Part shown: piece by piece, positions 20,174 to 34,056 of the stretch
Numbering within the stretch: the first letter of the stretch is position 1
Layout of the letters: each line of letters begins with the position of its first letter
Source: an uncultured Bacteroidia bacterium
GTDB taxonomy: Bacteria > Bacteroidota > Bacteroidia > Bacteroidales > F082
NCBI GenBank assembly: GCA_902801465.1
Contig: CADCIH010000018.1
Location: 1-44,557, forward strand
Direction: 5' to 3'
DNA: 44,557 nt
Notes under the pieces: model-generated
Databases searched by the model: none
Seen by the model: only the letters and a program-made list of their open reading frames with translations
Told to the model about the DNA's origin: nothing
Program-made: the position numbers and the translations under genes

Positions 20174-20779
20174 TCATAGTTCCATAACCCTAACAGCGGC
20201 CGTCTTTTCACCTTCGCAAATCGTCATGGTATAATCAAAATTGCCTTTTTCTCCTTTGGGAACGACCTCGTCTTTCACCAGCCCAGAGCCCCAATTCAAA
20301 TGGAAATAATAGCAACCGTCCCGATGGTCAAAGCCTTTATTCTTTAAATCTTGATAAAAAGTGCTGTCGGGCATATCCTTAAACTCCAATACAAAAGTGT
20401 CCTGGAAGTCTATCATCCATGCTTCTAGCCTACTTCTGTAAGGCCTGCCCTCCCGGTGCACGTCAAATGGGCCACTATTCAGATTTCGTTCTATTACTTT
20501 GTATTTCGGCATCCTAACCCCAGTGATATTTTCTATCACCCGAGGTCTAACAAAATGATACTTTCGCCAATAGTCTTGATAATAGAAATATGCCATTATA
20601 CCAAGAACAAAAAACACAACCAACATCAATGGCGATAGCACAAACAGTACAATCCTTAACCATTTCGGCAGCAGCTTCCAACGCCCATCAAGGATGAGCA
20701 ACAGCGGAGAAAGCGTAAGCCACGACGCGGCCAGTGCCGTACCTTTAATAATGCAAGAAAATGTTTTGTTCGTCATCAT
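20174..20779 (-). CDS. Hypothetical membrane protein
   Basis: This protein of about 201 residues has no family I recognise. After the start (MMTNKTFSCIIKGTALAASW) there are two hydrophobic segments (about residues 10-30 and 40-65), followed by a soluble C-terminal domain of about 130 residues rich in aromatic and charged residues and ending AAVRVMEL. The longest frame opens at 20911 but would overlap the preceding gene by 95 bp, so ATG 20779 (or 20776) is preferred. It belongs to a run of three small same-strand genes in AT-rich DNA downstream of the Pif1-like helicase. Confidence 0.6.
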   Translation of the reverse strand: MMTNKTFSCIIKGTALAASWLTLSPLLLILDGRWKLLPKWLRIVLFVLSPLMLVVFFVLGIMAYFYYQDYWRKYHFVRPRVIENITGVRMPKYKVIERNLNSGPFDVHREGRPYRSRLEAWMIDFQDTFVLEFKDMPDSTFYQDLKNKGFDHRDGCYYFHLNWGSGLVKDEVVPKGEKGNFDYTMTICEGEKTAAVRVMEL

Positions 20780-20816
20780 AATCAGAAAAATGCTTGAACT
20801 GTAACGTTTCGATTTT

Positions 20817-21443
20817 TTAAGATTGTTCTTGCTTGAATCCAATAATGTTTTTGTTTTCAGTTCGATACGGATAGTCTCTTTCCAAATACGGAACCAACCT
20901 GTTGTAATCACCTATAGCCAAGCCAATTGCCTCATAAGCTTGATCAAACTCTTCCATAAAATCTCCCGCGTTACCAATGGCAGCTTGATAACAACAGCAA
21001 AAACCATCATCCAGCACCACAAAAACGGTGTTTGTATTGTGAACGTTAATTGAATTGGCAGCTCGGCACCACCCGTCTGAACTAACTTTTTCAAAACTCT
21101 CATCACCGAAGTCGTATAGAACATAAAGGTTTTTTACCCATCTATTATAACTGTAGGCTAAATGTATTCTATATCGATTGTTGTTTTTGAATATATAAAG
21201 GACCCCCTCTTTCTTTTCGTATCGATAGCCCTGCCTATCCAGTCGTTTGCATATTCTGCGTTCAAGTCTTTCAATACTTGCATGAACAAGCCACAGAAAA
21301 ACAAAAACAACGACACCAATCCCGCAAAAGGACAAAAATACTATTCCAGCTACAGTTGACAAACTGAATAAAACCATCAGAGATAATAATACTATCCAAT
21401 AAACAACCTTGAATACAGCCGACTCCCTGTCGATCTTTTCCAT
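20817..21443 (-). CDS. Hypothetical membrane-anchored protein
   Basis: This protein of about 208 residues has two N-terminal membrane spans (about 10-60) and a cytoplasmic domain of about 140 residues. The tail pattern (YIFKNNNRYRIHL, then RAANSINVHNTNTVFVVLDDGF and FMEEFDQAYEAI) loosely resembles YbjN/secretion-chaperone-like folds; this is a guess. The run CCCY in that domain is unusual. The start at 21467 would be TTG; ATG 21443 after AAAGAAAT is the better choice. Neighbours on both sides are also small membrane proteins. Confidence 0.6.
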   Translation of the reverse strand: MEKIDRESAVFKVVYWIVLLSLMVLFSLSTVAGIVFLSFCGIGVVVFVFLWLVHASIERLERRICKRLDRQGYRYEKKEGVLYIFKNNNRYRIHLAYSYNRWVKNLYVLYDFGDESFEKVSSDGWCRAANSINVHNTNTVFVVLDDGFCCCYQAAIGNAGDFMEEFDQAYEAIGLAIGDYNRLVPYLERDYPYRTENKNIIGFKQEQS

Positions 21444-21486
21444 ATTTCTTTGATTTTTAATTGTCAAGTTTCATGGCTAAGCAATT

Positions 21487-21764: not shown

Positions 21765-23825
21765 TTAACAATCTCCAGAAAAAATTTTTCGTGCTTGTAT
21801 CAAAAACAGCTTGAAAGTCACACACGATTTGTCCGTTTCTTCAAGCATCGCTTTGAAATCTTCATCGGAAACAGACTTGTCTTTATAGGCTTTAATCAGT
21901 GTGTTTTCTTCCTCACCCTCATCTTCACTGACCAATTTGTCCAGTACATCTTTCCGAAGCATCAAATAGATAGGAATGTATTCTGGACAAAGTCTAAGCA
22001 ATTGCTTGTAATTGTCAGTATTTGACTTTCCTAGCTGAGCGTTAAGCTCTGCCTCAAAGAGATGTTGTTTCTTGTCGACGGTGATTTTGTCATCTGATTG
22101 CTCGCCGGCTGTACGAATCTGCTGCGCCACTTCCCATGCTTCCTCGTATCGGTTCAAACTTTGCAAGGCTTTCCCTTTGATGAACATGGCTTCAAGGCAA
22201 GGCCTACGGTCAAGCACCATATCTGCATAACCGATGGCTTCATCCAAATGGTCGCTGTATAGACATACTACTGCGTTAAGGAAATGGCATGTCGTACTAC
22301 AATCCTTCAACAGCGGACCATCCTTTGTCAGCCCTTTCAGGCATCTGTCGTCAAGCATCACATCAAACATCTTCTTGGCCAAGAGCGCAGCACTGCGATA
22401 GTCGCCCGCTTTCAATTTCTCAATGGCAAAATGCAGACACACCTTTGCGGCATTGTCGTAGTCCTTACTGTTTAGGTGTTTGTAAAGCATCCGTCCGAAG
22501 CTTAACTCCTCATCAATCATAGGCACATCGTTGAACGAGTTGGCAAAAGCCTTGATTTCCGCATTTTGCAAAATGTCGTTTTTGAAAATCTTTCTGCTCA
22601 ACGTCAATCCATCCAGCGAGCGCATACGGCTGATGGCCACGTATGCCTGACCTGCAGCAAAAGTGCCACGAGTAAGGTCGAAGTGCATCCGGTCAAATGT
22701 CATGCCTTGGGATTTGTGTATCGTGATGGCCCAAGCCAGTTTCAGCGGGTATTGCGTGAAGGATCCGACGACTTCGGATTTCACGGTTTTGGTCGTTTCA
22801 TCATAAACGCTTTCTTTAGTCTCCCACGTCATCTTTTCCACCTCGATTTCTTCTCCATCCCTCAAGGCGACTTTGATTGTATCGTCCTCCAAAGCCACAA
22901 CTTTGGCAATAGTACCGTTCACAACGCCACGAGGATAGTCGTTGCGGCAGAAAATGACCTGAGCGCCAACCTTAAGCCTCAACGTTATTGGGGCAGGAAC
23001 ATCCTGAGACTTGAACTTGCCCGAAATCTCGCCCTCATAGCAAAACTCCTCCGACTCAATTTCATTCAGTTTCTGATCATTGATGCCGTCTGCTGTGTTC
23101 ACGCGGGCAGTCAGAATGACAGAGTAATCGCCCACTTTATCATCGGAGCTCACATGACGGTTAAGGACATCCATGTCTTTTTCCGTGTTCTCTCCCAAGC
23201 GCATCCTATCCAGAATGTCCAGAAACTCCGAATCTTCTTGGCGATACACCTTTTGGAACTCTATCTTGGGCAGATTCATCCGCTTCATCACGTTTGCCTT
23301 GTAAAAATATGGAGTGCCGTTGCCGTACATATCACACAACATCATATCGTCGGCACTTCCGCGTCTCACCACTGGGGGCAACTGGAAAAGATCGCCGACA
23401 AACACCACTTGCTTACCGCCAAAAGGAAGATGAGTGTGCATCAAAACGCGAAGGAAGCGGTCGATGCCGTCCACCCAATCACAACGCACCATAGAGGCTT
23501 CATCGATAATGATGGTATCGATATGTTCAAGGGTCTTGCGCTTCTCCAAAGAAACTTCCATCTTTGTCTCCGGCCCTATTGCCTCAAAAGGAAGGCCGAA
23601 AAACGAGTGGATGGTTTGTCCCCCGACATTCATGGCGGCAATGCCAGTTGGAGCCAGCACCAAAAAGCTCTTTTTGATTTGCTCCTGAATACCCTTAACG
23701 AAAGTGGTCTTGCCCGTACCGGCCTTCCCAGTGATGAACAAACTGGTGTTGGTGTTTGCCACAAGGTCAAAAGCCTTTTGCTGCTCGAGGTTGGTTGGGT
23801 CAATTGTAAAACCTTCTTTCTCCAT
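21765..23825 (-). CDS. Pif1/RecD-like SF1 helicase with C-terminal TPR-like tail
   Basis: In this 686-residue protein, residues 1-430 are a Pif1-type SF1B helicase: Walker A GKAGTGKTT (33-41), TGIAAMNVGGQTIHSFFG, Walker B IIIDEAS (about 112-118), GDLFQLPPV, and the C-terminal RecA-like AWAITIHKSQGMTFD with AYVAISRM. Residues about 450-640 are alpha-helical with TPR-like spacing (AKVCLHFAIEKLKAGDYRSAALLAKKMF; AIGYADMVLDRRPCLEAMFIKGKAL). It probably unwinds DNA 5'-3'. Such Pif1-TPR proteins are common in Bacteroidetes, so it may be general rather than defence-specific. However, its promoter carries the island's shared operator (23863-23879), which ties it to the island. Confidence 0.9.
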   Translation of the reverse strand: MEKEGFTIDPTNLEQQKAFDLVANTNTSLFITGKAGTGKTTFVKGIQEQIKKSFLVLAPTGIAAMNVGGQTIHSFFGLPFEAIGPETKMEVSLEKRKTLEHIDTIIIDEASMVRCDWVDGIDRFLRVLMHTHLPFGGKQVVFVGDLFQLPPVVRRGSADDMMLCDMYGNGTPYFYKANVMKRMNLPKIEFQKVYRQEDSEFLDILDRMRLGENTEKDMDVLNRHVSSDDKVGDYSVILTARVNTADGINDQKLNEIESEEFCYEGEISGKFKSQDVPAPITLRLKVGAQVIFCRNDYPRGVVNGTIAKVVALEDDTIKVALRDGEEIEVEKMTWETKESVYDETTKTVKSEVVGSFTQYPLKLAWAITIHKSQGMTFDRMHFDLTRGTFAAGQAYVAISRMRSLDGLTLSRKIFKNDILQNAEIKAFANSFNDVPMIDEELSFGRMLYKHLNSKDYDNAAKVCLHFAIEKLKAGDYRSAALLAKKMFDVMLDDRCLKGLTKDGPLLKDCSTTCHFLNAVVCLYSDHLDEAIGYADMVLDRRPCLEAMFIKGKALQSLNRYEEAWEVAQQIRTAGEQSDDKITVDKKQHLFEAELNAQLGKSNTDNYKQLLRLCPEYIPIYLMLRKDVLDKLVSEDEGEEENTLIKAYKDKSVSDEDFKAMLEETDKSCVTFKLFLIQARKIFSGDC

Positions 23826-23844: not shown

Positions 23845-23879
23845 CAAAAGTATGAAGGTACTGCGAAATCTATTTTCGC
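23845..23879 (-). promoter_or_regulatory. Operator/promoter C (Pif1-like helicase)
   Basis: On the minus strand, the perfect inverted repeat GCGAAA-ATAGA-TTTCGC (23879-23863) is followed by AG, 8 nt, and the -7 box TACTTTTG (23852-23845). The spacing and 17-mer match three other island promoters. No TTTG -33 element is present; the inverted repeat takes its place. Confidence 0.75.
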
Positions 23880-23949
23880 GGATTTTTTGCAATTACAAAA
23901 ACAGCGGACTATTGCATTAGCCCGCTGTAATAAGTCTTGATTGTGATGG

Positions 23950-24963
23950 CTAATCCACTAATTCAAACAATCGGTTTTCTTTTGTTCCATAGAAAAGACT
24001 ATCTGGAGATTCCTTAACATGCTTTTTTACCGACCTTAACCAATTCTCGTACTTTGTAATATCTTGGCGATTATTGCCTAAAAGCCAAGGAAAAACTATA
24101 GAAACGGTTGGATTGTTCTTTGTCACGTAACCCTTGTCTCCAAACAAATCCAATCCATCTTCAGAATCAACCATAAAACTATTCGCAAGGATATGTCTAC
24201 TATGAAAAGACTCTTTCTTGTAATCATACCCCTTTGCCGTATAGAAAAACCCCAATTTGATTATAAGGCTTTTTCTAATTCGTTTGAAACATTTCTTCAC
24301 CTGCTCATATGCTCTTTTTACATCTTCTTGTCCCTTTATCAAAGAACTAATGATTGTGAGATGAAAATCAACATCTAACTCTTGTGGAAGGATTGCATCC
24401 AATAATGACTCTAAATTATTGGAGATCCCAGGAAATTTCACCGAATTGGTATTGCTATCAACTTCACGATCTAATAGTAAATATGGGTCTATAATTATTA
24501 AAGAATTACATGGCTGTCGCAATTTGTCTTTATACGTCATGTACCTAAGAGTATAACAATGGCGCTTATCTAAGCAAAAACCATCTCCCTTGAATAGGTG
24601 CTCTTTTTTGATAATTGATTCAGAACTAACCGCAATAACGCCATACTTTTCCCCGATTTTTTCGCACACAAATGGCTTTTTATCAAGCAAATAAGTTGCA
24701 CTCAAATCTTCTGGGTCTTCGGAGGAATTCAAAGTTTCAATCTTTTTGTTTATATATTTTTCATCGCATCTGACGTATTCCCCCTGACGAATCATTACCA
24801 TCAGAAACGGATCCTTTTTGATCAATTCTTCTGAAACATCTGTAACAACGAAAGAATTGCTTAATGCGTCTGACACATTGAGCATTGTACGGATTCCTTC
24901 TACAGTTGAATTTGTGTTAATACCATCCCAGAATCCCGATTGAAAAAATATTTTTGACTTCAT
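23950..24963 (-). CDS. Partner-1 of AAA ATPase-1, unknown function
   Basis: This 337-residue protein has no family I can name. Its start overlaps the ATPase-1 stop by 4 nt (ATGA), so the two are translationally coupled. The first 150 residues lack clear features. Then come a hydrophobic strand SLIIIDP (D159), a helix, a second strand FHLTIISS, and FHSRHILANSFMVDSEDGL (H254, R256). The same order and spacing (IILVD, then EHDRSIFTNYKVFASGDSF) is found in partner-2 at 29078-30040. The pattern recalls phospholipase D-like or MIT_C-like folds, but the classical HxKxxxxD motif is absent. Low GC content matches its ATPase. Confidence 0.72.
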   Translation of the reverse strand: MKSKIFFQSGFWDGINTNSTVEGIRTMLNVSDALSNSFVVTDVSEELIKKDPFLMVMIRQGEYVRCDEKYINKKIETLNSSEDPEDLSATYLLDKKPFVCEKIGEKYGVIAVSSESIIKKEHLFKGDGFCLDKRHCYTLRYMTYKDKLRQPCNSLIIIDPYLLLDREVDSNTNSVKFPGISNNLESLLDAILPQELDVDFHLTIISSLIKGQEDVKRAYEQVKKCFKRIRKSLIIKLGFFYTAKGYDYKKESFHSRHILANSFMVDSEDGLDLFGDKGYVTKNNPTVSIVFPWLLGNNRQDITKYENWLRSVKKHVKESPDSLFYGTKENRLFELVD

Positions 24964-26594
24964 GAGAGTATGGGCTTTTTTCTAAACAAATCCAATGCAA
25001 GTGTGTCAGCCTCGTCATAAAAACCTGGCCCAAAAGAATCACTCAACCGACCATCCTCCAATATCTCAATCTTACGGTTGGAGGAAATTCCGTTTTCGTC
25101 TTTCTCCACATAGTTGAGTGAAACATCATTCGGAGATAGTGCATTTTCTTTATCGGCCACCATCACCTGAAGCTTGCGTATCAAATATTCGCTGTGCGTC
25201 TCAATAATGAAGTGGATATTGTATTTTTGGTAGGCTTCCACAAACATTTCAGCCAACATAGATTGGTATTTGGGGTGAAGATGAATTTCTGGTTCTTCAA
25301 CACAAATAGACGATTCCCAGTATTCGAGAACCTCATCAAAATGATCGCAAACCACTTCGAGCTCTGAATGACAATACTTATCCTTGATGATATCTATCTG
25401 AAGCAACACAGACACTATTTGCGTTATTCCATATCCCTCATCAGCCAACAACCGTTTATTGCCATTGCTTTCAATAAAGATCTTTACACCCAACGCCTCG
25501 TCAGAGGCAACCATCTCAATTCGTTCGCCTATTCCAAACCTTTTAAGCCATTTGTTTACAAAAACTCCAGTCTGATGCTTATAATCACTGCTTCTGTCGA
25601 CTACTTCATATAGAATTTGGCTTAGTTTGTCTTTATCCTCCACATTATATACCCTACTAATTTTATTGCTTGATGAATCAACGAATGAAAGGTAACGCAT
25701 AAAAGCTGGCCTAATAATCTCGTTTAAAACACAAGTAAAATAGGTATCCCTCCTTTTTTCGTTTCTTTCTTCCTCACTCAAATCTTCTACGACCGTTTTG
25801 CCGAGCTCTTTTTTATTGTTGATTTGATGCCACATAATAATAGCGTGATGGTCGTATTCTTCAGCCTGTTCTTGACTAATGTTATCTTCATTCAATTGTT
25901 TAAGGCCTTTTTCTTTCCTCTCTTTTATTACATTTATTATGTCGGAATAATATTCATCTGCCGTCTCTTGCTTTTCATGCATAGAATGAACTTTATTTAC
26001 CCAATCCTCGCGTGTTTTAAAAAACAGGTAATTATATACAGATAAAAATCTTCGATAGTTTTCTTCAATTGTTTCTGGCAATTCATCTGGCCATTCAAAC
26101 CGCTCCACTTCAATTTCATCCAAATCTCCACTAACGAAAGAAATCACCGGTTTCCCCTCGAAGAGTATGTCGCCATTACTATTAAGTACTGAAAGCCTTT
26201 TCAGTTTGCCATCGGCCAACACTCCTTTGTTTGCTTTGTATTGCCATTTGCAAATCACGGATTCGTGAAGAAATTCAGACCAAACTTTGTATGAAACTAT
26301 AACCACTTTAGATGTGTCCTGCATGTGAACAACATTCCCAAAACCACCCAATTTAAGATCAACCGAGGAAGTTTTCAGCTTTAGTTCTGGTATAAACCTT
26401 TCTTCGTCGCTTAAGCCAATACGTTCTTTATAAAACTCTTGTCTTGCCATAAGCATCAATGCTTTCACCAGCGAACTTTTTCCCGCACTATTGCACCCCG
26501 TCAGCACAGTAATCGGGGCAAGTTCAAAATCGGCACCTTCTTCGCCAAAGGAACGGAAGTTTTTCAGGCTGAAAATTGGATTCATATTTTTCAT
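24960..26594 (-). CDS. AAA ATPase-1 (ABC/OLD-like, DUF3696-type)
   Basis: This 544-residue ATPase has Walker A GCNSAGKSS (33-41), a long insert with helical segments (about 160-340), the ADEGYGITQIV signature-like region (about 384-393), Walker B CVEEPEIHLHP (431-441), H-loop IIETHSEYL (H467) and a C-terminal DUF3696-like end, FGPGFYDEADTLALDL. Such ATPases pair with an effector gene in several anti-phage systems. Here the effector candidate is the overlapping partner-1. It has no TOPRIM domain, unlike true OLD nucleases. An operator site (26642-26658) lies 48 bp before the start. ATG at M4 is an alternative start. Confidence 0.88.
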   Translation of the reverse strand: MKNMNPIFSLKNFRSFGEEGADFELAPITVLTGCNSAGKSSLVKALMLMARQEFYKERIGLSDEERFIPELKLKTSSVDLKLGGFGNVVHMQDTSKVVIVSYKVWSEFLHESVICKWQYKANKGVLADGKLKRLSVLNSNGDILFEGKPVISFVSGDLDEIEVERFEWPDELPETIEENYRRFLSVYNYLFFKTREDWVNKVHSMHEKQETADEYYSDIINVIKERKEKGLKQLNEDNISQEQAEEYDHHAIIMWHQINNKKELGKTVVEDLSEEERNEKRRDTYFTCVLNEIIRPAFMRYLSFVDSSSNKISRVYNVEDKDKLSQILYEVVDRSSDYKHQTGVFVNKWLKRFGIGERIEMVASDEALGVKIFIESNGNKRLLADEGYGITQIVSVLLQIDIIKDKYCHSELEVVCDHFDEVLEYWESSICVEEPEIHLHPKYQSMLAEMFVEAYQKYNIHFIIETHSEYLIRKLQVMVADKENALSPNDVSLNYVEKDENGISSNRKIEILEDGRLSDSFGPGFYDEADTLALDLFRKKPILS

Positions 26595-26623
26595 CTTGTT
26601 ATTTGTTTTTCTGTTTTCGTTTG

Positions 26624-26658
26624 CAGAACTACAACCCCGCCGCGCAACCTATTTTCGC
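26624..26658 (-). promoter_or_regulatory. Operator/promoter B (AAA ATPase-1)
   Basis: Minus-strand GCGAAAATAGGTTGCGC (26658-26642) is followed by GG, 8 nt and a degenerate -7 box TAGTTCTG (26631-26624). The 17-mer and spacing equal operator A at 31705-31739, and the match to A continues for roughly 50 nt in total, flanks included. Confidence 0.7.
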
Positions 26659-26751
26659 ATATTTTCTTTTCAATTTCATATCATAGTCGTTCATATCCAG
26701 TTTCTCGTCGCTCAGCGAGGCCACAATCTTTTTTATTTCGCCGGTGATCAT
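26629..26751 (-). pseudogene. 40-codon ORF, HsdM-like N-terminal remnant
   Basis: It reads MITGEIKKIVASLSDEKLDM and continues to YAKIGCAAGL then TAG. The first seven residues (MITGEIK) match the usual start of type I HsdM methyltransferases in Bacteroidetes; the rest does not. It may be a remnant left by deletion or recombination, or a small functional ORF. Its last codons overlap operator B. Confidence 0.4.
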
Positions 26752-26785
26752 AGTTGACGGTTTCGAGGTTTATTTTACAGTTTCT

Positions 26786-29014
26786 TTATTCAAGATTTAT
26801 GGCTTCGTTAATCAAAGCTTGACGATAATTGAGCATAGTTTCTCTTGCCTCACCGCCAAGCATAGGAATCAATTCATCAAATGCCTTAATTCTCGGATTG
26901 AGATGTCGGACGACTGAGATTTGTTGAACCATCGGTGGAATAGACAATTGTATAGAGCGTAAATCAGAAATTGTCAAGTGTTTGATGGCATTACCTTTCG
27001 CCATATTCCTTAATTCTGGTTCAACTGATTTTATCAAATAGTAAAAGTATTCGGGATTAAACAAGTTGGTGTCCAAATCAACTTTTGCCATTGTGCGTGA
27101 CATATAGCCTTTTTTCCCATAAAACACTTCTCCTGCATTATCACCATCAAGCAGCACCAATGTGTCTCCTTCATTAACCAAAGTTTCACCTTCAATTTCA
27201 TCCGTAAATTCTTCAGGTTGTGAAATATAGCCACGAAGATAATTTGGCGTCAAAATCGGATAGTTCCCATTTGCTTTTATACTCGCTTGATTTCTTGTGC
27301 GTCTAAAACGTGCAACAGTGCCCAACAAGCAAGTATCAGGACCGCCAAATTGAGGTGTCACAGGTATCGAATCTTCTTCAAACGAGGACAATGTATGAAT
27401 CTGATTACTTAACTGATTAAGCAAATGTTCAACATCATTTTTCAAAACAGACAAAGGCAAGATCTCTGGCTTCTTAATAAAAGGAGCACGAATATCTATG
27501 ACACATTTTTTCCGGACTGAAGAGAAATCAATCCACGATTCTTTATCAAGATGATTCAAGATATTTCGTTTGACATAATCTATTACATCCTTTTCGGTGT
27601 TGGGTACAGAGACAACAATTGTTTTCTTCGAATCAATCTTCTTTTCACCCTTGACAATTATAACGTTGCTGTTTTCATCCCTTTCAGGTTGGTAAATCTT
27701 GAAAACATATTGTGTGAACTCTTCGTTGTTGGCAATATGGCAGAATTCATTTTCTTCAAATTCAGTATATGCATTTACAATCTGATTAGAGAAGTCGTCA
27801 GTCAGCGTAAATCTCCGATTCTTGTTCCCATAAACGAAAGCGTTTGCATTGATAATTTGTACTTTATTCTTCCTTTCACTACTTTTGTCCTTATTCAATA
27901 CACAAAGACAGATTGCGGCTGACGTTTTGGGATACAAAGCACCAGTCGGCAATGAAATAATGCTTTCTATCAAATCATTATCCAACATCCAAGAACGAAC
28001 CGTACTGCAATAAGGATGATCTTCTGAGAAAACCGTTGGCAAACAAGTAAAGACGGCCCTACCTCTTTGATTCATTTTGGCTATAATATGCTGAATAAAA
28101 AGCCATGTTCCATCATTGTTTGAAGGAATTCCGAACGGGTAAATATTACGATCCAATGCAAAAAAGCCTGTTACCATAAAACGCAAAGGCAAATCAGCCA
28201 CGATATAATCGAAATACTCATTCGGAAATGCATCCGCCACCAAAGCATTACCTATCGCAAATCTATTATTAAATTGATTTGTTGTCTTAGAAAGCAAAGC
28301 ATTGAAACTGGACATTTTGGGATCCATGTCTTGGCCTGAAGCAAATAAAGGTGATTTAGAAACAGATTGAGCCATGCGGAGCAAGTTTCCAGTCCCACAG
28401 GTGGGATCATACAATCTCTGGCTTCCTTCCTTTTTATCATCCAACAACAACGTCGCCATCAAACGTGACAACTCTGAACTTGTATATTGATGATTTGATG
28501 ATGACGAAATCAAGTCAATAACAATTCCCTCAAAATCCTCAGCATCTATGCTATCACCTAATTCAAGGTAACAGATACTATCGACGACAAAATAGTATAA
28601 ATCGTCATACATCAACTTGCTGGCATATTCAATGGCGCCAAATTCTTTAAGTTGTCTGGCGGTACGCGTGTCAAAACAATCAATATAATGTTCCAATCCT
28701 GATGCACCTTGCAAGTATCCATGACTAAGCAAATCACCCATTGTACTAGCAGACAAAATATAAAAGTCTATTTCGCCGCCAATCACCTTGCGAACCTTGA
28801 AATCCATGTCATCCCTATCCACCACATCCTTGTATTGGTTGTATAGTTTCATAACCCGATTGCGGTAAGGTTCAAACATACATTCCAAGCGACGCAGAAT
28901 TACAAACAAAAGCAAAGCATTTGCTGAATCTGTTACCGGCATTGTCCCTCTCATTTTATTCGAGATGCCCCAAAGACGAGATTTGACTGATTTTACTATT
29001 TCTGGATTTGACAT
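26786..29014 (-). CDS. HsdM-like pseudo-methyltransferase fused to a single HsdS recognition domain
   Basis: This 742-residue protein has an N-terminal HsdM-like helical domain (about 1-170), a methyltransferase core (about 175-480) and one HsdS-type target-recognition/spacer unit (about 560-735, GDTLVLLDGDNAGEVF, GYMSRTMAK, AIKHLTISDLRSIQLSIPP). SAM motif I is intact (DPTCGTGNLL, 203-212). Catalytic motif IV, which should be NPP[FYW], reads ADLPL (273-277) in FDYIVADLPLRF. N6-adenine methylation is therefore doubtful. No HsdR gene is in the window. The gene sits between the two ATPase/partner pairs on the same strand. It could be a DNA-recognition or sensor subunit. It has its own TAATTTTG -7 box just upstream of the ATG. 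Confidence 0.85.
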   Translation of the reverse strand: MSNPEIVKSVKSRLWGISNKMRGTMPVTDSANALLLFVILRRLECMFEPYRNRVMKLYNQYKDVVDRDDMDFKVRKVIGGEIDFYILSASTMGDLLSHGYLQGASGLEHYIDCFDTRTARQLKEFGAIEYASKLMYDDLYYFVVDSICYLELGDSIDAEDFEGIVIDLISSSSNHQYTSSELSRLMATLLLDDKKEGSQRLYDPTCGTGNLLRMAQSVSKSPLFASGQDMDPKMSSFNALLSKTTNQFNNRFAIGNALVADAFPNEYFDYIVADLPLRFMVTGFFALDRNIYPFGIPSNNDGTWLFIQHIIAKMNQRGRAVFTCLPTVFSEDHPYCSTVRSWMLDNDLIESIISLPTGALYPKTSAAICLCVLNKDKSSERKNKVQIINANAFVYGNKNRRFTLTDDFSNQIVNAYTEFEENEFCHIANNEEFTQYVFKIYQPERDENSNVIIVKGEKKIDSKKTIVVSVPNTEKDVIDYVKRNILNHLDKESWIDFSSVRKKCVIDIRAPFIKKPEILPLSVLKNDVEHLLNQLSNQIHTLSSFEEDSIPVTPQFGGPDTCLLGTVARFRRTRNQASIKANGNYPILTPNYLRGYISQPEEFTDEIEGETLVNEGDTLVLLDGDNAGEVFYGKKGYMSRTMAKVDLDTNLFNPEYFYYLIKSVEPELRNMAKGNAIKHLTISDLRSIQLSIPPMVQQISVVRHLNPRIKAFDELIPMLGGEARETMLNYRQALINEAINLE

Positions 29015-29077
29015 TATATTGAACTTAATTCGATTGGCAAAATTACTATTTCTATTTGCAAGTTTTCTGCATAAGTT

Positions 29078-30040
29078 TTAGAAATTGATGAAATTACTAA
29101 CTTTATCTTTTATGATCAAGTTGGGATTATGAATCTCTTCTTTTATATAACTCACTATTTTCTGCAAATCTGAAACCAAAACCTTAGCATCGTCAGCATT
29201 GCTACTATCCGCACAACTATGAACATGAAGATACCTCCCTTTCGTAATCTTATTACCTTGCGAGTCAAAATAATTAAAAGAGTCACCGCTAGCAAATACT
29301 TTATAATTAGTAAAAATACTTCTATCATGTTCTTTCAACACTTCTTTGTTAACAGTGACAAAAGTCACATTCGGCCTATATCTACCATTAACTTTATTCC
29401 TTATTCCAGTATAAATCGCATCCCAATCAATTACATCTCCATTTTCTTTTGATGTAAAAATTACTATGTTTACCCTTTGATTATTGACTTTCTGACATAA
29501 AACCTTTAAAATGGAGTATAAATTGGAGGAATACAATTCTTGATTTGAAAAAATAAATCGATCTACAAGAATAATATCCGTAGTTGGGGAAGAATAATTC
29601 AGCAAATCATCCCATTTTTTGATTTTTTGAAAAACGTTCTTTGTATACTGATTACTTTCAATAAATAAGGTTGATAGTATATCAACTTCATCTCCTAATG
29701 AAGCAATCAACAGCATTCCCTTATTTGCATAACATTGACTGTTTTGCAAACAATAGACTGACATTAATTTGTTCTGATCTTTTTCAACTTGTTTAAGATC
29801 AAAGGAAACGTCAAACGTTTTATCACCCCATTTAATGTCTTCTTTTAAATTATCCATTGACCTCATCCATAAACTAAAATCATTCATATCATCATCGCAA
29901 AAGCTCTCGACATCTGATTTAGAGAATGAAAAATGTAAAGAAAAATGATCTTTCAGCATCCGAATACAATCCCCATATTTATCCTTTTTTGCAGAACGGA
30001 TAAAAGATAGCAGATTAGGGGCGTCAAAATAAATATCCAT
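29078..30040 (-). CDS. Partner-2 of AAA ATPase-2, unknown function
   Basis: This 320-residue protein begins 2 bp after the ATPase-2 stop. The N-terminal half is unassigned and helical. The C-terminal half has the strand TDIILVD (D160), a helix, RVNIVIFTSKEN, then EHDRSIFTNYKVFASGDSF (H238, R240) and a basic strand KGRYLHVHS. This order and the distance between the Asp strand and the HxR motif (about 95 to 80 residues) mirror partner-1. The HDRxIxTNY pattern resembles PLD-like/MIT_C-like nucleic-acid or lipid-binding folds. It may be the effector of the pair; no catalytic triad can be proved by eye. The DNA is strongly AT-rich. Confidence 0.7.
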   Translation of the reverse strand: MDIYFDAPNLLSFIRSAKKDKYGDCIRMLKDHFSLHFSFSKSDVESFCDDDMNDFSLWMRSMDNLKEDIKWGDKTFDVSFDLKQVEKDQNKLMSVYCLQNSQCYANKGMLLIASLGDEVDILSTLFIESNQYTKNVFQKIKKWDDLLNYSSPTTDIILVDRFIFSNQELYSSNLYSILKVLCQKVNNQRVNIVIFTSKENGDVIDWDAIYTGIRNKVNGRYRPNVTFVTVNKEVLKEHDRSIFTNYKVFASGDSFNYFDSQGNKITKGRYLHVHSCADSSNADDAKVLVSDLQKIVSYIKEEIHNPNLIIKDKVSNFINF

Positions 30041-30042
30041 AG

Positions 30043-31575
30043 CTAAAACAATTCAAATGCCAAACTAGATGCTTCATTATAGAAAGAAGATTTGAATTCA
30101 TTCGAAAATCTTCCATTTTCTCTAAACACCATCTGATACGGTCCTTCTTTCTCGTCAAAGAAAAAGACCTTAAACGGATTGTTTTCTATCATAAATTTCC
30201 CTTGTTTTATGCATTCGGCCACAATGACTTGGCATTTTCTTACCAAATACTCCGAATGGGTTTCAACAACGAATCTGATATTGAACTCATCATACACTTG
30301 ATATAACAAATCCGTCAACTTTGATTGTAATGCAGGGTGCAAGTTCTGTTCTGGCTCTTCAACCAACACTATTGGAGCATCAGTTTTGCCCTGATATTTC
30401 TTTATTATTGAAGCTAAACGAACAAATAGTATTACTAATTGAATAGTACCTCGTCCCATGTCAGCCAAATCAATCCATTTGCCATTAGATTTAAGGACAA
30501 ATTGACAAGCCTCACCTTGAATCGTTGTAACTTTATAGTCATCAACAGCACAAAAATCTTTCAGCCAAGACAATACTATCTTCCCTATCTCCGATTTAGA
30601 TGTAATTCGTTGATTATAAATTTCATAAATACTCTTAGACACATAATCGTTTTCATCCTTCTTATTATAAATCACTCGTTGATTTGCATTATGAGAGTAC
30701 AGATACTCAACACTTATTTTTTGTACAGCATGCTCGAAACGGTTGCATACGTCATTAAAATCTGAGAGATGCTGCTCAAGCCATGCCAAATCTTTCTGGC
30801 CAATTTCTGTTTTTTCCGATTTTTTTCTCTTTGCATAAATCTCAACAAACTCCAATAATCCTTGCAAATAACTATAGACATAGGAGTAGCTGCTACTCGA
30901 CAAACTCTGTTGCAGCCTCGTCTCAATCCCAATACCCTCTGATTCTAAATTTTTTCTTAATTCTTTCAAAGCAGCTTCAATATGAGATTTTTGGGCAATA
31001 CGATCAAGCATCTTATTTCCATTCTCCTCATTAAGTTCCAACTCAGACATTCTGTCAAGATCCACCTCAGTTCTTTTCAATTCCATCTCTAATTCCTCAA
31101 TCCTCTTTTGTATTTCCATTCTTTGCTCAATGTATGAAGAAACTTGAACTTTTCCATTGGCAACATCAAACACAAACTTTAAATCAGTCTTTTGATCCTC
31201 AAGTTTGATATATTTCACATCGGCATACCCCTCCTCTTTTGGTGAATTACTATAAATACAAACCTCAACGAAAAACTCTTCAATAGCAGCATTAAACACT
31301 ATTTCCTTTTCTTTTGCTTTCCAGCATAACGCACGACCAAATGTGTCAATATTTACATCGTGCGCCCCAGGACCATCAAAACGAAACTTTGGAGTTTCAA
31401 ACAAATTGGAATTTGATATTTTTTGGTTTTTAAGGAAATCTAAAAGCAATAACACACCTTTTACGACGGTTGATTTGCCCGCATTATTACCTCCGACGAA
31501 TAAATTGATGCCTCCTAAAGGAAGACTTTTTAGTTCCTTAAACCGACGGAAGTTTCTGAATCCAATTTCATTCAT
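30043..31575 (-). CDS. AAA ATPase-2 (ABC/OLD-like)
   Basis: This protein of about 510 residues starts MNEIGFRNFRRFKELKSLPL. It has Walker A GGNNAGKST (29-36 region), a coiled-coil-rich insert (about 145-215, many E/K/L heptads), Walker B VLVEEPEQNLHP (E406/E407) and H-loop VVETHSEYL (H440). The C-terminal end SSFYNEASSLAFELF parallels the ATPase-1 end. The longest frame starts with a TTG at 31617 that overlaps a TATTTTTG -7 box (31615-31622), so ATG 31575 is the real start. It is likely the sensor or motor of a two-gene system with partner-2. Confidence 0.88.
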   Translation of the reverse strand: MNEIGFRNFRRFKELKSLPLGGINLFVGGNNAGKSTVVKGVLLLLDFLKNQKISNSNLFETPKFRFDGPGAHDVNIDTFGRALCWKAKEKEIVFNAAIEEFFVEVCIYSNSPKEEGYADVKYIKLEDQKTDLKFVFDVANGKVQVSSYIEQRMEIQKRIEELEMELKRTEVDLDRMSELELNEENGNKMLDRIAQKSHIEAALKELRKNLESEGIGIETRLQQSLSSSSYSYVYSYLQGLLEFVEIYAKRKKSEKTEIGQKDLAWLEQHLSDFNDVCNRFEHAVQKISVEYLYSHNANQRVIYNKKDENDYVSKSIYEIYNQRITSKSEIGKIVLSWLKDFCAVDDYKVTTIQGEACQFVLKSNGKWIDLADMGRGTIQLVILFVRLASIIKKYQGKTDAPIVLVEEPEQNLHPALQSKLTDLLYQVYDEFNIRFVVETHSEYLVRKCQVIVAECIKQGKFMIENNPFKVFFFDEKEGPYQMVFRENGRFSNEFKSSFYNEASSLAFELF

Positions 31576-31626
31576 GATATAATCGTTTGTATTGTATTTA
31601 TTCTTTATTGCTTGCAAAAATAGTAA

Positions 31627-31683
31627 TTAAAGCCCTTCCCTAATTTGATTATTTCTATAGCCGACTATTTTTTCCATCTTCAT
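31627..31683 (-). CDS. Possible 18-residue leader peptide
   Basis: The ORF MKMEKIVGYRNNQIREGL lies between operator/promoter A and ATPase-2, wholly in the leader that promoter A would produce. It ends just before the second -7 box (31615-31622). It is short and could be chance. Confidence 0.2.
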   Translation of the reverse strand: MKMEKIVGYRNNQIREGL

Positions 31684-31704
31684 CAGTATTCGTCTTTTCG
31701 TTTG

Positions 31705-31739
31705 CAAAAGTACAACCCTACCGCGCAACCTATTTTCGC
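31705..31739 (-). promoter_or_regulatory. Operator/promoter A (AAA ATPase-2)
   Basis: Minus-strand GCGAAAATAGGTTGCGC (31739-31723) is followed by GG, 8 nt and a perfect -7 box TACTTTTG (31712-31705). The operator overlaps the stop codon of the DUF1016 nuclease gene, whose TAG is part of AAAATAG. Confidence 0.75.
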
Positions 31740-32896
31740 GAATTTTCTTTTTTCAGTTCCAACTCCCTCACCGTGCGCTCCACCACCTGTTCAAGCTGGT
31801 AGGTGGATACGCCAAGCGGCTTGTTGATGTCGCGCAACGACCATTCCACAACGGTCTTGTCGGTCGATTTGCAGATGATCAGCCCTACGGTGGGGTTGTC
31901 GCCCTCGCCACGCAGCAACTCATCAACAGCGGTAACGTAGAAATTCAGCTTGCCGGCAAACTCGGGGATGTACTTCACCACCTTCAGCTCAATGACGACA
32001 TAGCGGTGCTGCGGGATGTGATAGAACAACAAATCGGGGAAGAAGGTCTGTCCGCCAGGCATCTGCAACTCCATCTGTCGCCCCACATACGAAAAGCCCT
32101 TGCCCAACTCCATCAAGAAGCGCGTGACATTCGACACAAGCGCATCCTCCAAGTCTTTCTCCTCGTACTCCTCGCTCATCGAGAGGAACCCAAAATGATA
32201 AGGGTCTTTCAGTATCTCCTTGGCCAACTGGCTCTGCGGAGCCGGAAGCGTATGCTCAAAGTTGGTCACGGCTGCCCCTTGGCTGCCAAAGAGATTGGCC
32301 GCTATCTGGCTCTCAAGTCGGCTGCGACTCCAGCCTTCTTCAGTCACCTTATTGATATAGAAAATGGCCTCGTCGAGGGTTTGGCATTTGGAAAAGATTA
32401 GAATATGACAGCCCCAAGGTATAAGTCCAAATGAATCAGGGAATTGCAATTGGTCAACAACTTGTTGACCTTTTTCGTTTTCGTCCAATTGGCCAGCAAC
32501 TTGCTGGCTTTTTTCAATGTCCTCAAATTGGCCACCAGCTTGGTGACCAATTTGGTCAACGGGTTGTTGACCTTTTATAACCCGTTCATAATAAAACAGA
32601 TACCATCTTTTCATATACTTTACATTGGTATCTGAAAAGCCCGTTTCATCGGGAAAGGCTTGGCGCATGTCGAGGGCAAACTGCTTCACCACACCTGCGC
32701 CCCAGCGTTCTTCAGCGCGAAGTGCCACCAAATCACGACCCACGCTCCAATAAAACTCAAGCATTGCTGTGTTCACTCGAACCGTCGCCTTGACTTGGCT
32801 TTGACGGAAACGCTGCTTAATGTCAGCCATCCATTGCACATAGCCTTCATCGGCGGTCATCATGTCACGGGATACGAATGTCGGTTTGTCGCTCAT
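31730..32896 (-). CDS. DUF1016 (YhcG-type) PDDEXK nuclease
   Basis: This 388-residue protein has an N-terminal DUF1016 helical domain (about 15-108), a repetitive linker (109-150) and a C-terminal PDDEXK nuclease domain (about 155-370). The catalytic pattern is PDLLFYH (D288), then YVVIELKV (E303, K305). This family is frequent beside type I restriction and other defence genes and may be recruited as a DNA-cutting accessory. The linker is encoded by palindromic repeats (32452-32572). Its -7 box TATATTTG lies about 20-30 bp before the ATG, and no island operator is seen there. ATG 32896 gives the family's usual start MSDKPT-like. Confidence 0.92.
   Translation of the reverse strand: MSDKPTFVSRDMMTADEGYVQWMADIKQRFRQSQVKATVRVNTAMLEFYWSVGRDLVALRAEERWGAGVVKQFALDMRQAFPDETGFSDTNVKYMKRWYLFYYERVIKGQQPVDQIGHQAGGQFEDIEKSQQVAGQLDENEKGQQVVDQLQFPDSFGLIPWGCHILIFSKCQTLDEAIFYINKVTEEGWSRSRLESQIAANLFGSQGAAVTNFEHTLPAPQSQLAKEILKDPYHFGFLSMSEEYEEKDLEDALVSNVTRFLMELGKGFSYVGRQMELQMPGGQTFFPDLLFYHIPQHRYVVIELKVVKYIPEFAGKLNFYVTAVDELLRGEGDNPTVGLIICKSTDKTVVEWSLRDINKPLGVSTYQLEQVVERTVRELELKKENSRK
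32452..32572. repeat. Four palindromes in tandem within the DUF1016 nuclease gene
   Basis: The palindromes are 32452-32470 (GGTCAACAACTTGTTGACC), 32491-32509, 32530-32548 and 32554-32572 (GGTCAACGGGTTGTTGACC). The first three recur at 39-bp steps and encode a 13-residue unit (x-QQVxxQLDENEK). The fourth follows after 24 bp. There are no unique spacers, so this is not a CRISPR array. Confidence 0.9.
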
Positions 32897-32938
32897 ATTT
32901 CTATAAAGTTAGTGAAATGCAAATATACAAAAAAAACT

Positions 32939-34000
32939 TTACAGAGATTGGTAGGCTTGAAATTGTTTTGTCACTCGGTCGCGCACCTTCTGCTGGATGT
33001 TGTCGGGTGAGAGAACCAACAGGTCTTTGCCGAAAGAAGATAATTCGCGGATAAGCTCATAATTCTCTATGCAGTCAATGGAGAAGAATGCGCCTTTTTC
33101 AAGTTTTGGGTATTGTTGCCGCAATTCCATTTCTCTTTCCCCTTTGTAATGCCGCTGAGACTCATGTAGGGGTTTTGTGGCCACATAATCCTTGGAAAAA
33201 TCACTAACCCAAAACAAGATGGTCTGCAACGGATTGCCATCGATGAGCGTCACCCCGATGATGTCCTCAAATCGCTCGTTGAGGTCACCATCGTATTCCT
33301 TATGACTACGAGAGGGCAAAGGGACAAACTTATCGATACGGTCGAGTGCAAACGACAGTATTTTGCCATCATTGTCGGCGGCAACGATAAGATACCAACG
33401 GCGATTGTACTCTTTAAGCAGGTAAGGATGCACAACGGTTTTGCGGTCTTCATCAGGCGTGTCAAATCGATGGTAATGCAATTCCACGACCTGTTTCTGC
33501 GCAATACAAGTGAAAAGTTCGCCAAGCAAGTTGGAATTCTCTAATGGATTCTTTGCGAATGACACTATCTGGCGGTCGGTTTTTACTTTGAGACTTTCCC
33601 TCAGCCTTTCCAAGCCCTCAAGATAGTTCAACCCCTCAAATTGCCCGAGAAGCCTGAAAGCCTCTCCAAGTAGATGTTTCTCGTCATCGGTAAGTTTCTG
33701 CGTAAATATGGAAAAAGACGGGTCGGCATACCGATGACAGCTTTTTTTGATAGTCTTGAGGGTTCTCTGGCTGACATCATCAACCTGGTAATGATCTATT
33801 TCAGCCGCGAAAGGGCTTTCCCATTCCAAATAATGAAGGTCAAGTTCGATTGTGCGACGAGTCACTGGCTTTTGCCCCAATTCTATCAGTTCTTCGTTAA
33901 CCAATCGTAATAAATCCTCTGTTGAGTAATTGTGATAACGGTTCGCTAACAACTGGTCCAAAATGTAATAACGGGTAACGGCGTTCTTGTTTGCAGGCAT
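32939..34000 (-). CDS. WYL-domain transcriptional regulator
   Basis: This protein of about 353 residues has an N-terminal winged-helix region (about 5-90, TRYYILDQLLANRYHNYSTEDLL and QKPVTRRTIELDLHYL), a WYL domain (about 155-235, with NRRWYLIVAADNDGKILSFALDRI, W202-Y203-L204) and a C-terminal WCX-like dimerisation part (about 255-353). The build matches BrxR/CapW-type regulators of anti-phage loci, which bind inverted repeats and respond to ligands through the WYL fold. The longest frame begins at 34144, upstream of the -7 box; ATG 34000 (MPANKNAVTR) lies about 22 bp after it and is preferred. Operator D in its own promoter suggests autoregulation. Confidence 0.9.
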   Translation of the reverse strand: MPANKNAVTRYYILDQLLANRYHNYSTEDLLRLVNEELIELGQKPVTRRTIELDLHYLEWESPFAAEIDHYQVDDVSQRTLKTIKKSCHRYADPSFSIFTQKLTDDEKHLLGEAFRLLGQFEGLNYLEGLERLRESLKVKTDRQIVSFAKNPLENSNLLGELFTCIAQKQVVELHYHRFDTPDEDRKTVVHPYLLKEYNRRWYLIVAADNDGKILSFALDRIDKFVPLPSRSHKEYDGDLNERFEDIIGVTLIDGNPLQTILFWVSDFSKDYVATKPLHESQRHYKGEREMELRQQYPKLEKGAFFSIDCIENYELIRELSSFGKDLLVLSPDNIQQKVRDRVTKQFQAYQSL

Positions 34001-34021
34001 ATTATTCTGTGTTTGATCCTG

Positions 34022-34056
34022 CAAAGATAAAACAATCCTGCGAAATCTATTTTCGT
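34022..34056 (-). promoter_or_regulatory. Operator/promoter D (WYL regulator)
   Basis: Minus-strand ACGAAAATAGATTTCGC (34056-34040) is followed by AG, 8 nt and the -7 box TATCTTTG (34029-34022). It differs from operator C in one base of the 17-mer and has identical spacing. Confidence 0.75.

What the first reader, a model, noticed from the sequence alone, without database searches (positions are those of the whole stretch)
23845..34056. One inverted-repeat operator with fixed spacing in four promoters of the island, next to a WYL regulator
Minus-strand 17-mers GCGAAAATAGATTTCGC (C), ACGAAAATAGATTTCGC (D) and GCGAAAATAGGTTGCGC (A and B) sit at 23863-23879, 34040-34056, 31723-31739 and 26642-26658. 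In every case the 17-mer is followed by two purines, exactly 8 nt, then a -7 box. C is a perfect inverted repeat (GCGAAA-N5-TTTCGC). It occupies the place of the missing -33 element. The genes served are the helicase, ATPase-1, ATPase-2 and the WYL gene itself. BrxR and CapW are precedents for WYL proteins controlling defence loci through inverted repeats. A regulon made of several separate transcription units inside one island would be unusual.
Basis: partly seen in the sequence, partly recalled or inferred. Interest (0 to 1): 0.85.

Follow-up and report, generated by a model that had tools for sequence, protein, structure and literature searches.

The report
Shared switch for swappable phage defences
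In gut and rumen Bacteroidales, one regulator gene sits in an island of different phage-defence genes whose promoters share its probable DNA target at one exact spot, so it probably switches them on together.

Summary
In detail: four dyads at the stated places, each at constant distance from a -7 box, and no other mismatch-free copy in the 2.46-Mb genome. They belong to a wider pattern. In Bacteroidales WYL loci, perfect dyads centred exactly 18.5 nt upstream of TAnnTTTG number 51 of 902 boxes and 80 of 1157 in a second set, against 0 of 638 in control DNA. Dyad letters differ by WYL clade and track the WYL tree and putative recognition helix; the position does not move. Cargo is swappable: retron-like reverse transcriptase, RM-like units, ATPase pairs, helicases. 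A helicase copy without a WYL orthologue lacks the operator. Site B carries a copy of the yhcG tail, so the operator segment is also a cassette joint. The geometry resembles the WYL activators DriD, SiwR and PafBC more than the repressors BrxR and CapW (passages). Best reading: a WYL activator regulon. Binding, direction of control and signal are inferred, not shown.

The parts
34040..34056 (-). operator D (ACGAAAATAGATTTCGC), promoter of the WYL-yhcG pair; dyad centre 18.5 nt upstream of the -7 box
34022..34029 (-). -7 box TATCTTTG of the WYL promoter
   Evidence: read
32939..34000 (-). WYL regulator, 353 aa; WYL domain and a WCX match just under cut-off; N-terminal region with putative recognition helix
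   Evidence: Pfam WYL 1.6e-12, WCX 1.1e-4 (on the longer TTG-start frame); translation; homologues
31730..32896 (-). yhcG / DUF1016 PDDEXK nuclease gene, second gene of the WYL unit
   Evidence: Pfam YhcG_C 1.7e-53, DUF1016_N 2.1e-31; PADLOC PDC-S02
31723..31739 (-). operator A (GCGAAAATAGGTTGCGC), overlaps the yhcG stop codon
31705..31712 (-). -7 box TACTTTTG of promoter A
   Evidence: read
30043..31575 (-). ATPase-2 (AAA_15/AAA_21), first gene of unit A, from the likely ATG
29078..30040 (-). unknown 320-aa protein of unit A
   Evidence: no Pfam or PADLOC match at 0.001; clustered with one protein each of L075 and L081
26786..29014 (-). HsdM-HsdS fusion (N6_Mtase + Methylase_S), unit A
26642..26658 (-). 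operator B (GCGAAAATAGGTTGCGC), promoter of ATPase-1
26624..26631 (-). -7 box TAGTTCTG of promoter B (one letter off consensus)
   Evidence: read
26576..26670 (-). segment that begins with a copy of the yhcG tail and matches the yhcG-ATPase junctions of G096 and G108; probable scar of cassette insertion
   Evidence: D2
24960..26594 (-). ATPase-1 (AAA_15, DUF3696)
23950..24963 (-). unknown 337-aa protein, partner of ATPase-1
   Evidence: no Pfam or PADLOC match at 0.001; same pair in L068, L086, L091
23863..23879 (-). operator C (GCGAAAATAGATTTCGC), promoter of the helicase
23845..23852 (-). -7 box TACTTTTG of promoter C
   Evidence: read
21765..23825 (-). Pif1-like helicase, 686 aa
   Evidence: Pfam PIF1 3.5e-35

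Best explanation
The island is a regulon of its own WYL protein. The protein, probably a homodimer, reads a 15-17-bp dyad centred about 30 bp upstream of the start of transcription, where the -33 element of a Bacteroidales promoter would lie, at a fixed distance from the -7 box. It most likely acts as an activator in the manner of DriD/SiwR/PafBC: bound there, with a ligand in the WYL domain (probably nucleic acid made during infection or DNA damage), it holds RNA polymerase at a promoter without a -33 element and turns on the whole island, that is WYL-yhcG, the RM-like unit, the ATPase pair and the helicase. The operator-promoter at the end of yhcG is also a constant joint at which defence cassettes are exchanged, so new cargo comes under the switch. 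Shown by sequence: operator, spacing, clade-specific pairing with WYL, cargo exchange. Inferred: binding, activation rather than repression, the signal, the start of transcription.
For: (1) Genome pairing: of 173 family genomes, 16 of the 17 with a WYL of at least 77% identity hold CGAAAATAG[A/G]TT[T/G]CG, against 2 of the other 156 (Fisher 1.7e-19, not corrected for kinship). The 17th, G060, has the operator with one change; of the two exceptions, G099 keeps a WYL remnant. (2) Fixed geometry found without using the motif: perfect 5-bp-arm dyads at offset 18.5 from TAnnTTTG: 51 of 902 boxes, at most 7 at any other offset (not de-duplicated); second set 80 of 1157 distinct boxes, mean elsewhere 2.8, maximum 7; control DNA 0 of 638, though other offsets there reach 8. 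(3) Specificity follows the protein: operator labels ('none' counted as one) need 22 changes on a tree of 110 WYL proteins against 59.1 shuffled, 0 of 200 as low; residue 53, in the putative recognition helix, is Leu in 27 of 28 CGAAA-class and Lys in 40 of 43 CGAAC-class rows. (4) One gene family, different local WYL: the RT has the CGAAA-type operator in G063/G068/G080/G103/G126 and the TGCAA type in G105/G107/G067. (5) WYL orthologue absent, operator absent: the G117 helicase, 79% identical; 21 Pif1 paralogues examined also have none upstream. (6) TGCAA class: 14 sites away from the WYL gene are at 18.5, while all 7 at the WYL gene's own promoter are at 22.5-24.5, so 18.5 has a meaning of its own. 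(7) No TTG 22-27 nt upstream in 46 operator promoters, against 34 of 153 comparison boxes. (8) PDB search with the WYL profile: two 'transcriptional regulator-like' chains (7p5x, 9fnd; recalled as PafBC complexes, the call does not name them so) 7e-7 and PafBC 6sj9 6e-6, ahead of WYL proteins 7qfz 0.001 and 7tb5 0.003, CapW 0.013 and 0.22, and BrxR 0.03.
Against: No binding, expression or start-site data. A repressor that must block sigma at -33 could also be kept at one place. In the CGAAA class the WYL gene's own promoter also sits at 18.5, which would mean positive feedback. The -33 element is weak in Bacteroidales: 119 of 153 comparison boxes, which are not proven promoters, also lack TTG in that range, and the dyad's own letters fill most of that range, so the 0 of 46 is partly by construction. 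Of 80 named loci 26 show no site; 11 of these are contigs by length, whose boxes were dropped, so 15 are true misses by the strict rule. In the WYL-less island L087 one near-complete site with its box remains (8075), and in L096 the yhcG-tail site has lost its box although the WYL is intact. One search found no site for several ATPase and RT relatives. The PDB ranking rests on the shared WYL/WCX part, and no chain named DriD was among the matches. Clades of related loci make all counts non-independent. Some TGCAA sites precede small ORFs of unknown role.
Confidence: 0.66

Rival explanations
1. The WYL protein is a repressor of the BrxR/CapW kind: it covers the -33 region of all island promoters and keeps them silent until a ligand releases it.
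For: The two defence-linked WYL regulators with tested function in the papers I opened, BrxR and CapW, are repressors, and BrxR has two R-boxes in one island (passages); a third, sll7009, is cited as a negative regulator of a CRISPR system (passage). Self-regulation at site D is ordinary for a repressor.
Against: BrxR and CapW sites lie downstream of or over the -10, not upstream at one exact spot. The offset is the same to the nucleotide in classes with different dyads, which simple blocking does not need. The TGCAA class separates its other sites (18.5) from its own promoter (22.5-24.5).
Confidence: 0.27
2. The dyad is the upstream element of an alternative sigma factor, not the site of the WYL protein.
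For: It sits where an upstream promoter element would, at fixed distance, and these promoters show no TTG in the -33 range.
Against: The -7 box is the housekeeping TAnnTTTG; the element is a dyad; its sequence changes with the local WYL clade; no dyad at that offset in 638 boxes of control DNA, and no other mismatch-free copy in the genome.
Confidence: 0.03
3. The repeats are only recombination joints: a promoter segment copied along with cassettes, without a regulator.
For: Site B carries a copy of the yhcG tail and matches the yhcG-cargo junctions of G096 and G108; the segment is near-constant while the cargo changes; L087 keeps one near-complete site although its WYL is only a remnant.
Against: In the 41-nt family sites A, B and D are 66-78% identical to C, with the likeness concentrated in dyad and box (D1); both arms change together between clades; two of three sites in L087 have lost their box.
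Confidence: 0.04

Closest known systems
DriD (Caulobacter WYL activator; PMC12340889, a preprint, passages only)
   Same: wHTH-WYL-WCX homodimer; site overlaps the -35 region, at the same distance from the -10 in its promoters, with poor -35 elements; drives several promoters
   Different: DNA-damage regulon rather than a defence island; another phylum and sigma factor; its contact with DNA is asymmetric, not tested here
SiwR (Mycobacterium smegmatis; PMC10693628, passages only) and PafBC (PMC11804915, PMC5656591, passages only)
   Same: WYL activators; SiwR binds a 19-bp imperfect palindrome between -35 and -10; the PafBC-linked motif tTGTCRgtg-8 nt-TannnT has a fixed gap to the -10, and PafBC works by sigma adaptation; PafBC is among the best profile matches in the PDB
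   Different: DNA-damage or stress genes, not swappable defence cassettes; PafBC is a heterodimer with a -26 motif, here the centre is about -30
BrxR (PMC9122601, passages only)
   Same: WYL regulator in a defence island; inverted repeats; two boxes in one island
   Different: repressor; box downstream of the -10; longer repeats (11-bp arms, 5-bp spacer)
CapW (PMC9122588, passages only)
   Same: homodimeric WYL regulator of a defence operon; palindromes of 19-24 bp
   Different: repressor; palindrome over the -10; one operon
RptR (PMC12255303, abstract and outline only)
   Same: dedicated regulator of a defence island with RM genes; palindromic site conserved across genomes
   Different: described as a small regulator, not as a WYL protein; repressor of one promoter with three direct repeats

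Membership tests
WYL-domain transcription regulators (wHTH-WYL-WCX) | WYL domain above Pfam cut-off | tested here: met
   PF13280 47.7 bits, cut-off 21.8
WYL-domain transcription regulators (wHTH-WYL-WCX) | WCX extension | tested here: inconclusive
   PF25583 22.9 bits, just under cut-off 23.9
WYL-domain transcription regulators (wHTH-WYL-WCX) | N-terminal winged helix-turn-helix | tested here: inconclusive
WYL activators of the DriD/SiwR/PafBC kind | binding site in the -35/-26 region at fixed distance from the -10/-7 box | tested here: met
   (for the sequence element; binding itself not tested)
WYL activators of the DriD/SiwR/PafBC kind | poor or missing -35/-33 element | tested here: inconclusive
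   0 of 46 with TTG at 22-27 against 34 of 153 comparison boxes; weak, since the -33 is poorly conserved and the dyad fills the range
WYL activators of the DriD/SiwR/PafBC kind | regulator needed for transcription; WYL domain binds ssDNA | not testable with these tools
   needs experiment
BrxR/CapW repressors | palindrome over or downstream of the -10 | tested here: not met
   the 15-mer ends 11 nt upstream of the -7 box at all four window sites
BrxR/CapW repressors | repression of the defence operon | not testable with these tools
   needs experiment
retron (RT cargo in relatives, not in the window) | reverse transcriptase of a defence/retron clade | tested here: met
   RVT_1 1.6e-22; PADLOC RT models, best RT-Protease_XI 1.1e-108, retron RT_Ec107-like 2.3e-57
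retron (RT cargo in relatives, not in the window) | structured msr-msd RNA with inverted repeats a1/a2 upstream of the RT | tested here: inconclusive
   14-pair closing repeat and long hairpins predicted in the 320-nt leader, but 0 compensatory pairs in 5 near-identical sequences and no retron match in Rfam

The most novel reading that the evidence does not exclude
Bacteroidales have a promoter class of their own for phage defence. A family of WYL activators with distinct operator codes replaces the -33 element at one exact position, and the operator-promoter doubles as the joint where defence cassettes are swapped. Whatever lands there (retron, RM system, ATPase pair, helicase) is wired at once to one infection- or damage-sensing switch.
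Probability: 0.5. Interest if true: 0.87.

Novelty: new variant of a known kind. Interest (0 to 1): 0.78.

Why it matters
How co-localised defence systems are controlled together is largely open. Here the regulator, its probable operators and the exact promoter geometry can be read from sequence across an order of gut and rumen bacteria. That makes regulons predictable from raw contigs, gives protein-operator pairs with matched changes, and turns activator-versus-repressor into a simple reporter test. It also suggests how new defence genes become regulated at once: insertion behind a constant operator-promoter. Several cargo families had no Pfam match or no PADLOC match in the calls made (6, 7, 29, 31) and are candidate defence genes by association.

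Tried and rejected
Structure prediction of the WYL protein: switched off for all sessions, so no fold comparison. Viral contigs: 2 pattern matches, neither encoding a relative. Rfam on the five RT loci: 2 matches, both below gathering. P0001 alone against the PDB: best E 0.12; the A2 profile did better. Considered and rejected: a general Bacteroidales promoter element (0 of 638 control boxes); a sigma-factor element; pure recombination repeats. Set aside as chance or not counted: L005, L006; the eight genomes with other letters at the two free positions (G034, G035, G038, G059, G079, G147, G153, G155), dropped before the 18-genome count; G158 was counted as an exception. In one search L077 and L089:6064 among 59 rows look like chance; two dyads of no class stay in the 51; three dyads of no class (L226:7519, L229:16668, L260:2708) stay in the 80. 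In one search five of 125 proteins under 280 aa were left out of the helix table, 30 of 125 loci had no class, and some loci are one contig fetched by two tools; the tree used 110 distinct proteins. In one search the pattern also hit L171:12575, an imperfect dyad at 27.5, not counted, and found nothing in L169; the own-promoter dyads of L167 and L171 were assigned to the WYL gene by its coordinates, the other five by the script. I saw no paper on a WYL operator code in Bacteroidales in the listings of searches, which cover open-licence PMC papers only.
Full report
OBSERVATION. The four 17-mers are at the stated places (4 matches at up to 3 mismatches, 0.12 expected). Each is followed by two purines, 8 nt and a -7 box; box B, TAGTTCTG, is one letter off consensus. 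The genome of 2,457,948 bases holds no other match without mismatch and two at 2 mismatches, with one in the reversed control. A repeat search that knew nothing of the motif returns the four places as one 41-nt family.

ANATOMY. All these genes lie on the minus strand. D drives the WYL gene (32939-34000) and yhcG/DUF1016 behind it. A overlaps the yhcG stop codon and drives ATPase-2, a 320-aa unknown and an HsdM-HsdS fusion. B drives ATPase-1 (DUF3696) and a 337-aa unknown. C drives a Pif1-like helicase. The grouping into transcription units is inferred from order and gaps.

ACROSS GENOMES. Of 173 genomes of the family, 26 hold CGAAAATAGNTTNCG. Of these, 18 have A/G and T/G at the two free positions; the other eight were set aside as likely chance. 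Of 17 genomes with a WYL of at least 77% identity, 16 hold the motif; of the other 156, two do (G099, with a WYL remnant, and G158). Fisher 1.7e-19, uncorrected for kinship. In 35 stretches (the window and 34 fetched, some without a WYL) intact sites have the -7 box 11 nt after the 15-mer, within one letter of TAnnTTTG, with one to four sites per WYL island. Exceptions: L087:9809, L087:10871 and L093:10222 in islands with a WYL remnant, and L096:11169 beside an intact WYL, have no box at that distance; L087:8075 keeps its box.

GEOMETRY WITHOUT THE MOTIF. For every TAnnTTTG box I asked at which distance a dyad with five paired outer bases is centred. In the WYL loci 51 of 902 boxes have one at 18.5 nt, and no other offset has more than 7 (not de-duplicated; letters shuffled: 2 at 18.5). 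In a second set, 80 named loci from one capped genome-contig scan, with 173 boxes already seen dropped, it is 80 of 1157; other offsets average 2.8 and reach 7. In 574,408 bases of control DNA it is 0 of 638, while other offsets there reach 8. 54 of the 80 named loci have at least one such site and 23 at least two. Of the 26 without, 11 have the contig length of a locus, so their boxes had been dropped; 15 are true misses by this strict rule.

THE CODE FOLLOWS THE PROTEIN. Dyad arms fall into classes: CGAAA, CGCAA, CGAAC, TGCAA, TTCAG/TTCAA. On a tree of 110 WYL proteins the labels, 'none' included, need 22 changes; shuffled labels need 59.1 on average and none of 200 shuffles is as low. In the putative recognition helix, residue 53 is Leu in 27 of 28 CGAAA-class rows and Lys in 40 of 43 CGAAC-class rows. 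Kinship explains part of this. The window's own genome has a second WYL on contig 8, with a TTCAA dyad at 18.5.

CARGO TEST. One gene family carries the operator of its local WYL. The reverse transcriptase has the CGAAA-type operator in five genomes and the TGCAA type in three. In G067 the RT and the WYL are on different contigs, both within 6 kb of a contig end. Of 16 RT relatives nine have a site in the stretch searched (one, G041, with 4 of 5 arm pairs). Three more (G116, G125, G051) have sites further upstream before another ORF. Four (G114, G165, G012, G142) have none found. The helicase has an operator in 7 of 7 WYL-linked copies examined there; the copy in G117, 79% identical and without a WYL orthologue, has none, nor have 21 paralogues of about 40% identity, apart from one hit inside a gene. 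For the ATPase 6 of 14 show a site by that rule. The window's own site B misses it by one box letter, G050 has its site beyond the flank, G095 further upstream before a 174-aa ORF, and five show none.

SWAPPABLE CARGO AND THE JOINT. Behind yhcG lie, in different genomes: ATPase-2 with RM genes; an 829-aa protein with a GHKL-ATPase match just under cut-off and its partner; an RT with a 320-nt structured leader; the ATPase-1 pair; HsdM/HsdS; a DrmD-like SNF2 helicase (directly behind, without its own operator); and others. In most the segment from yhcG's last codons through the operator to the box is near-constant. In the window, site B begins with a copy of the yhcG tail and aligns with the G096 and G108 yhcG-ATPase junctions over 95 and 99 nt. 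So ATPase-1 probably once lay directly behind yhcG, and the RM-like cassette entered between them by recombination in that segment.

MECHANISM. WYL repressors BrxR and CapW bind downstream of or over the -10 (passages). WYL activators bind further upstream: DriD over the -35 region at one distance from the -10, with poor -35 elements (passages), SiwR on a palindrome between -35 and -10 (passages), PafBC at -26 by sigma adaptation, with a linked motif 8 nt from the -10 (passages). The housekeeping promoter of the phylum is TAnnTTTG at -7 with TTTG near -33 (passages). The dyad here spans the -33 position. 0 of 46 operator promoters have TTG there against 34 of 153 comparison boxes, partly because the dyad's own letters fill the range. 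In the TGCAA class 14 sites away from the WYL gene are at 18.5, while the seven at the WYL gene's own promoter are at 22.5-24.5, about half a helical turn away. A repressor would not need that split; an activator of cargo with different self-control would show it. In the PDB the WYL profile matches PafBC and two chains I recall as PafBC best, BrxR and CapW less. I therefore hold activation more likely than repression, about 0.66 to 0.27. The signal is unknown; nucleic acid is a guess from DriD, SiwR and PafBC.

LIMITS.

Recounting changed the RT tally (three, not two, with sites further upstream; four, not five, with none), split the 26 loci without a site, added the L087:8075 and L096 exceptions, and set the -33 test to inconclusive.

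Noticed in passing
L083, L084, L085, L090, L097: about 320 nt between operator promoter and RT gene (e.g. L084:9444-9765 minus): Retron-like leader with a 14-pair closing inverted repeat and long hairpins, mean column identity 96% in five genomes; 0 compensatory changes, no retron match in Rfam.
   Followed up: partly
window 32450-32576: Four copies of a 25-nt repeat (spacings 39, 39, 24) within yhcG, itself near-palindromic (TTGGTCAACAACTTGTTGACC), in the part between the two YhcG domains (D3).
   Followed up: no
L087 9809 and 10871; L093 10222: Islands where the WYL gene match is reduced to its last 57-62 codons and these sites have no -7 box at the usual distance; L087:8075 still has one.
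   Followed up: partly
L164-L168, L170, L171: In the TGCAA class the WYL gene's own promoter has its dyad at 22.5-24.5 instead of 18.5; in L167 one dyad serves two divergent promoters.
   Followed up: partly
G000 contig 8, L074 (WYL at contig 46252-47250): A second WYL in the same genome with its own dyad class (TTCAA) at the same offset, beside relatives of the DrmD-like SNF2 protein and its partner that lie behind yhcG in G132.
   Followed up: partly
window 20174-21467: Two small genes behind the helicase, neither with a PADLOC match; 20174-20911 has no Pfam match, the other was not tested in Pfam. Relatives follow the helicase or the RT cassettes in other islands.
   Followed up: no
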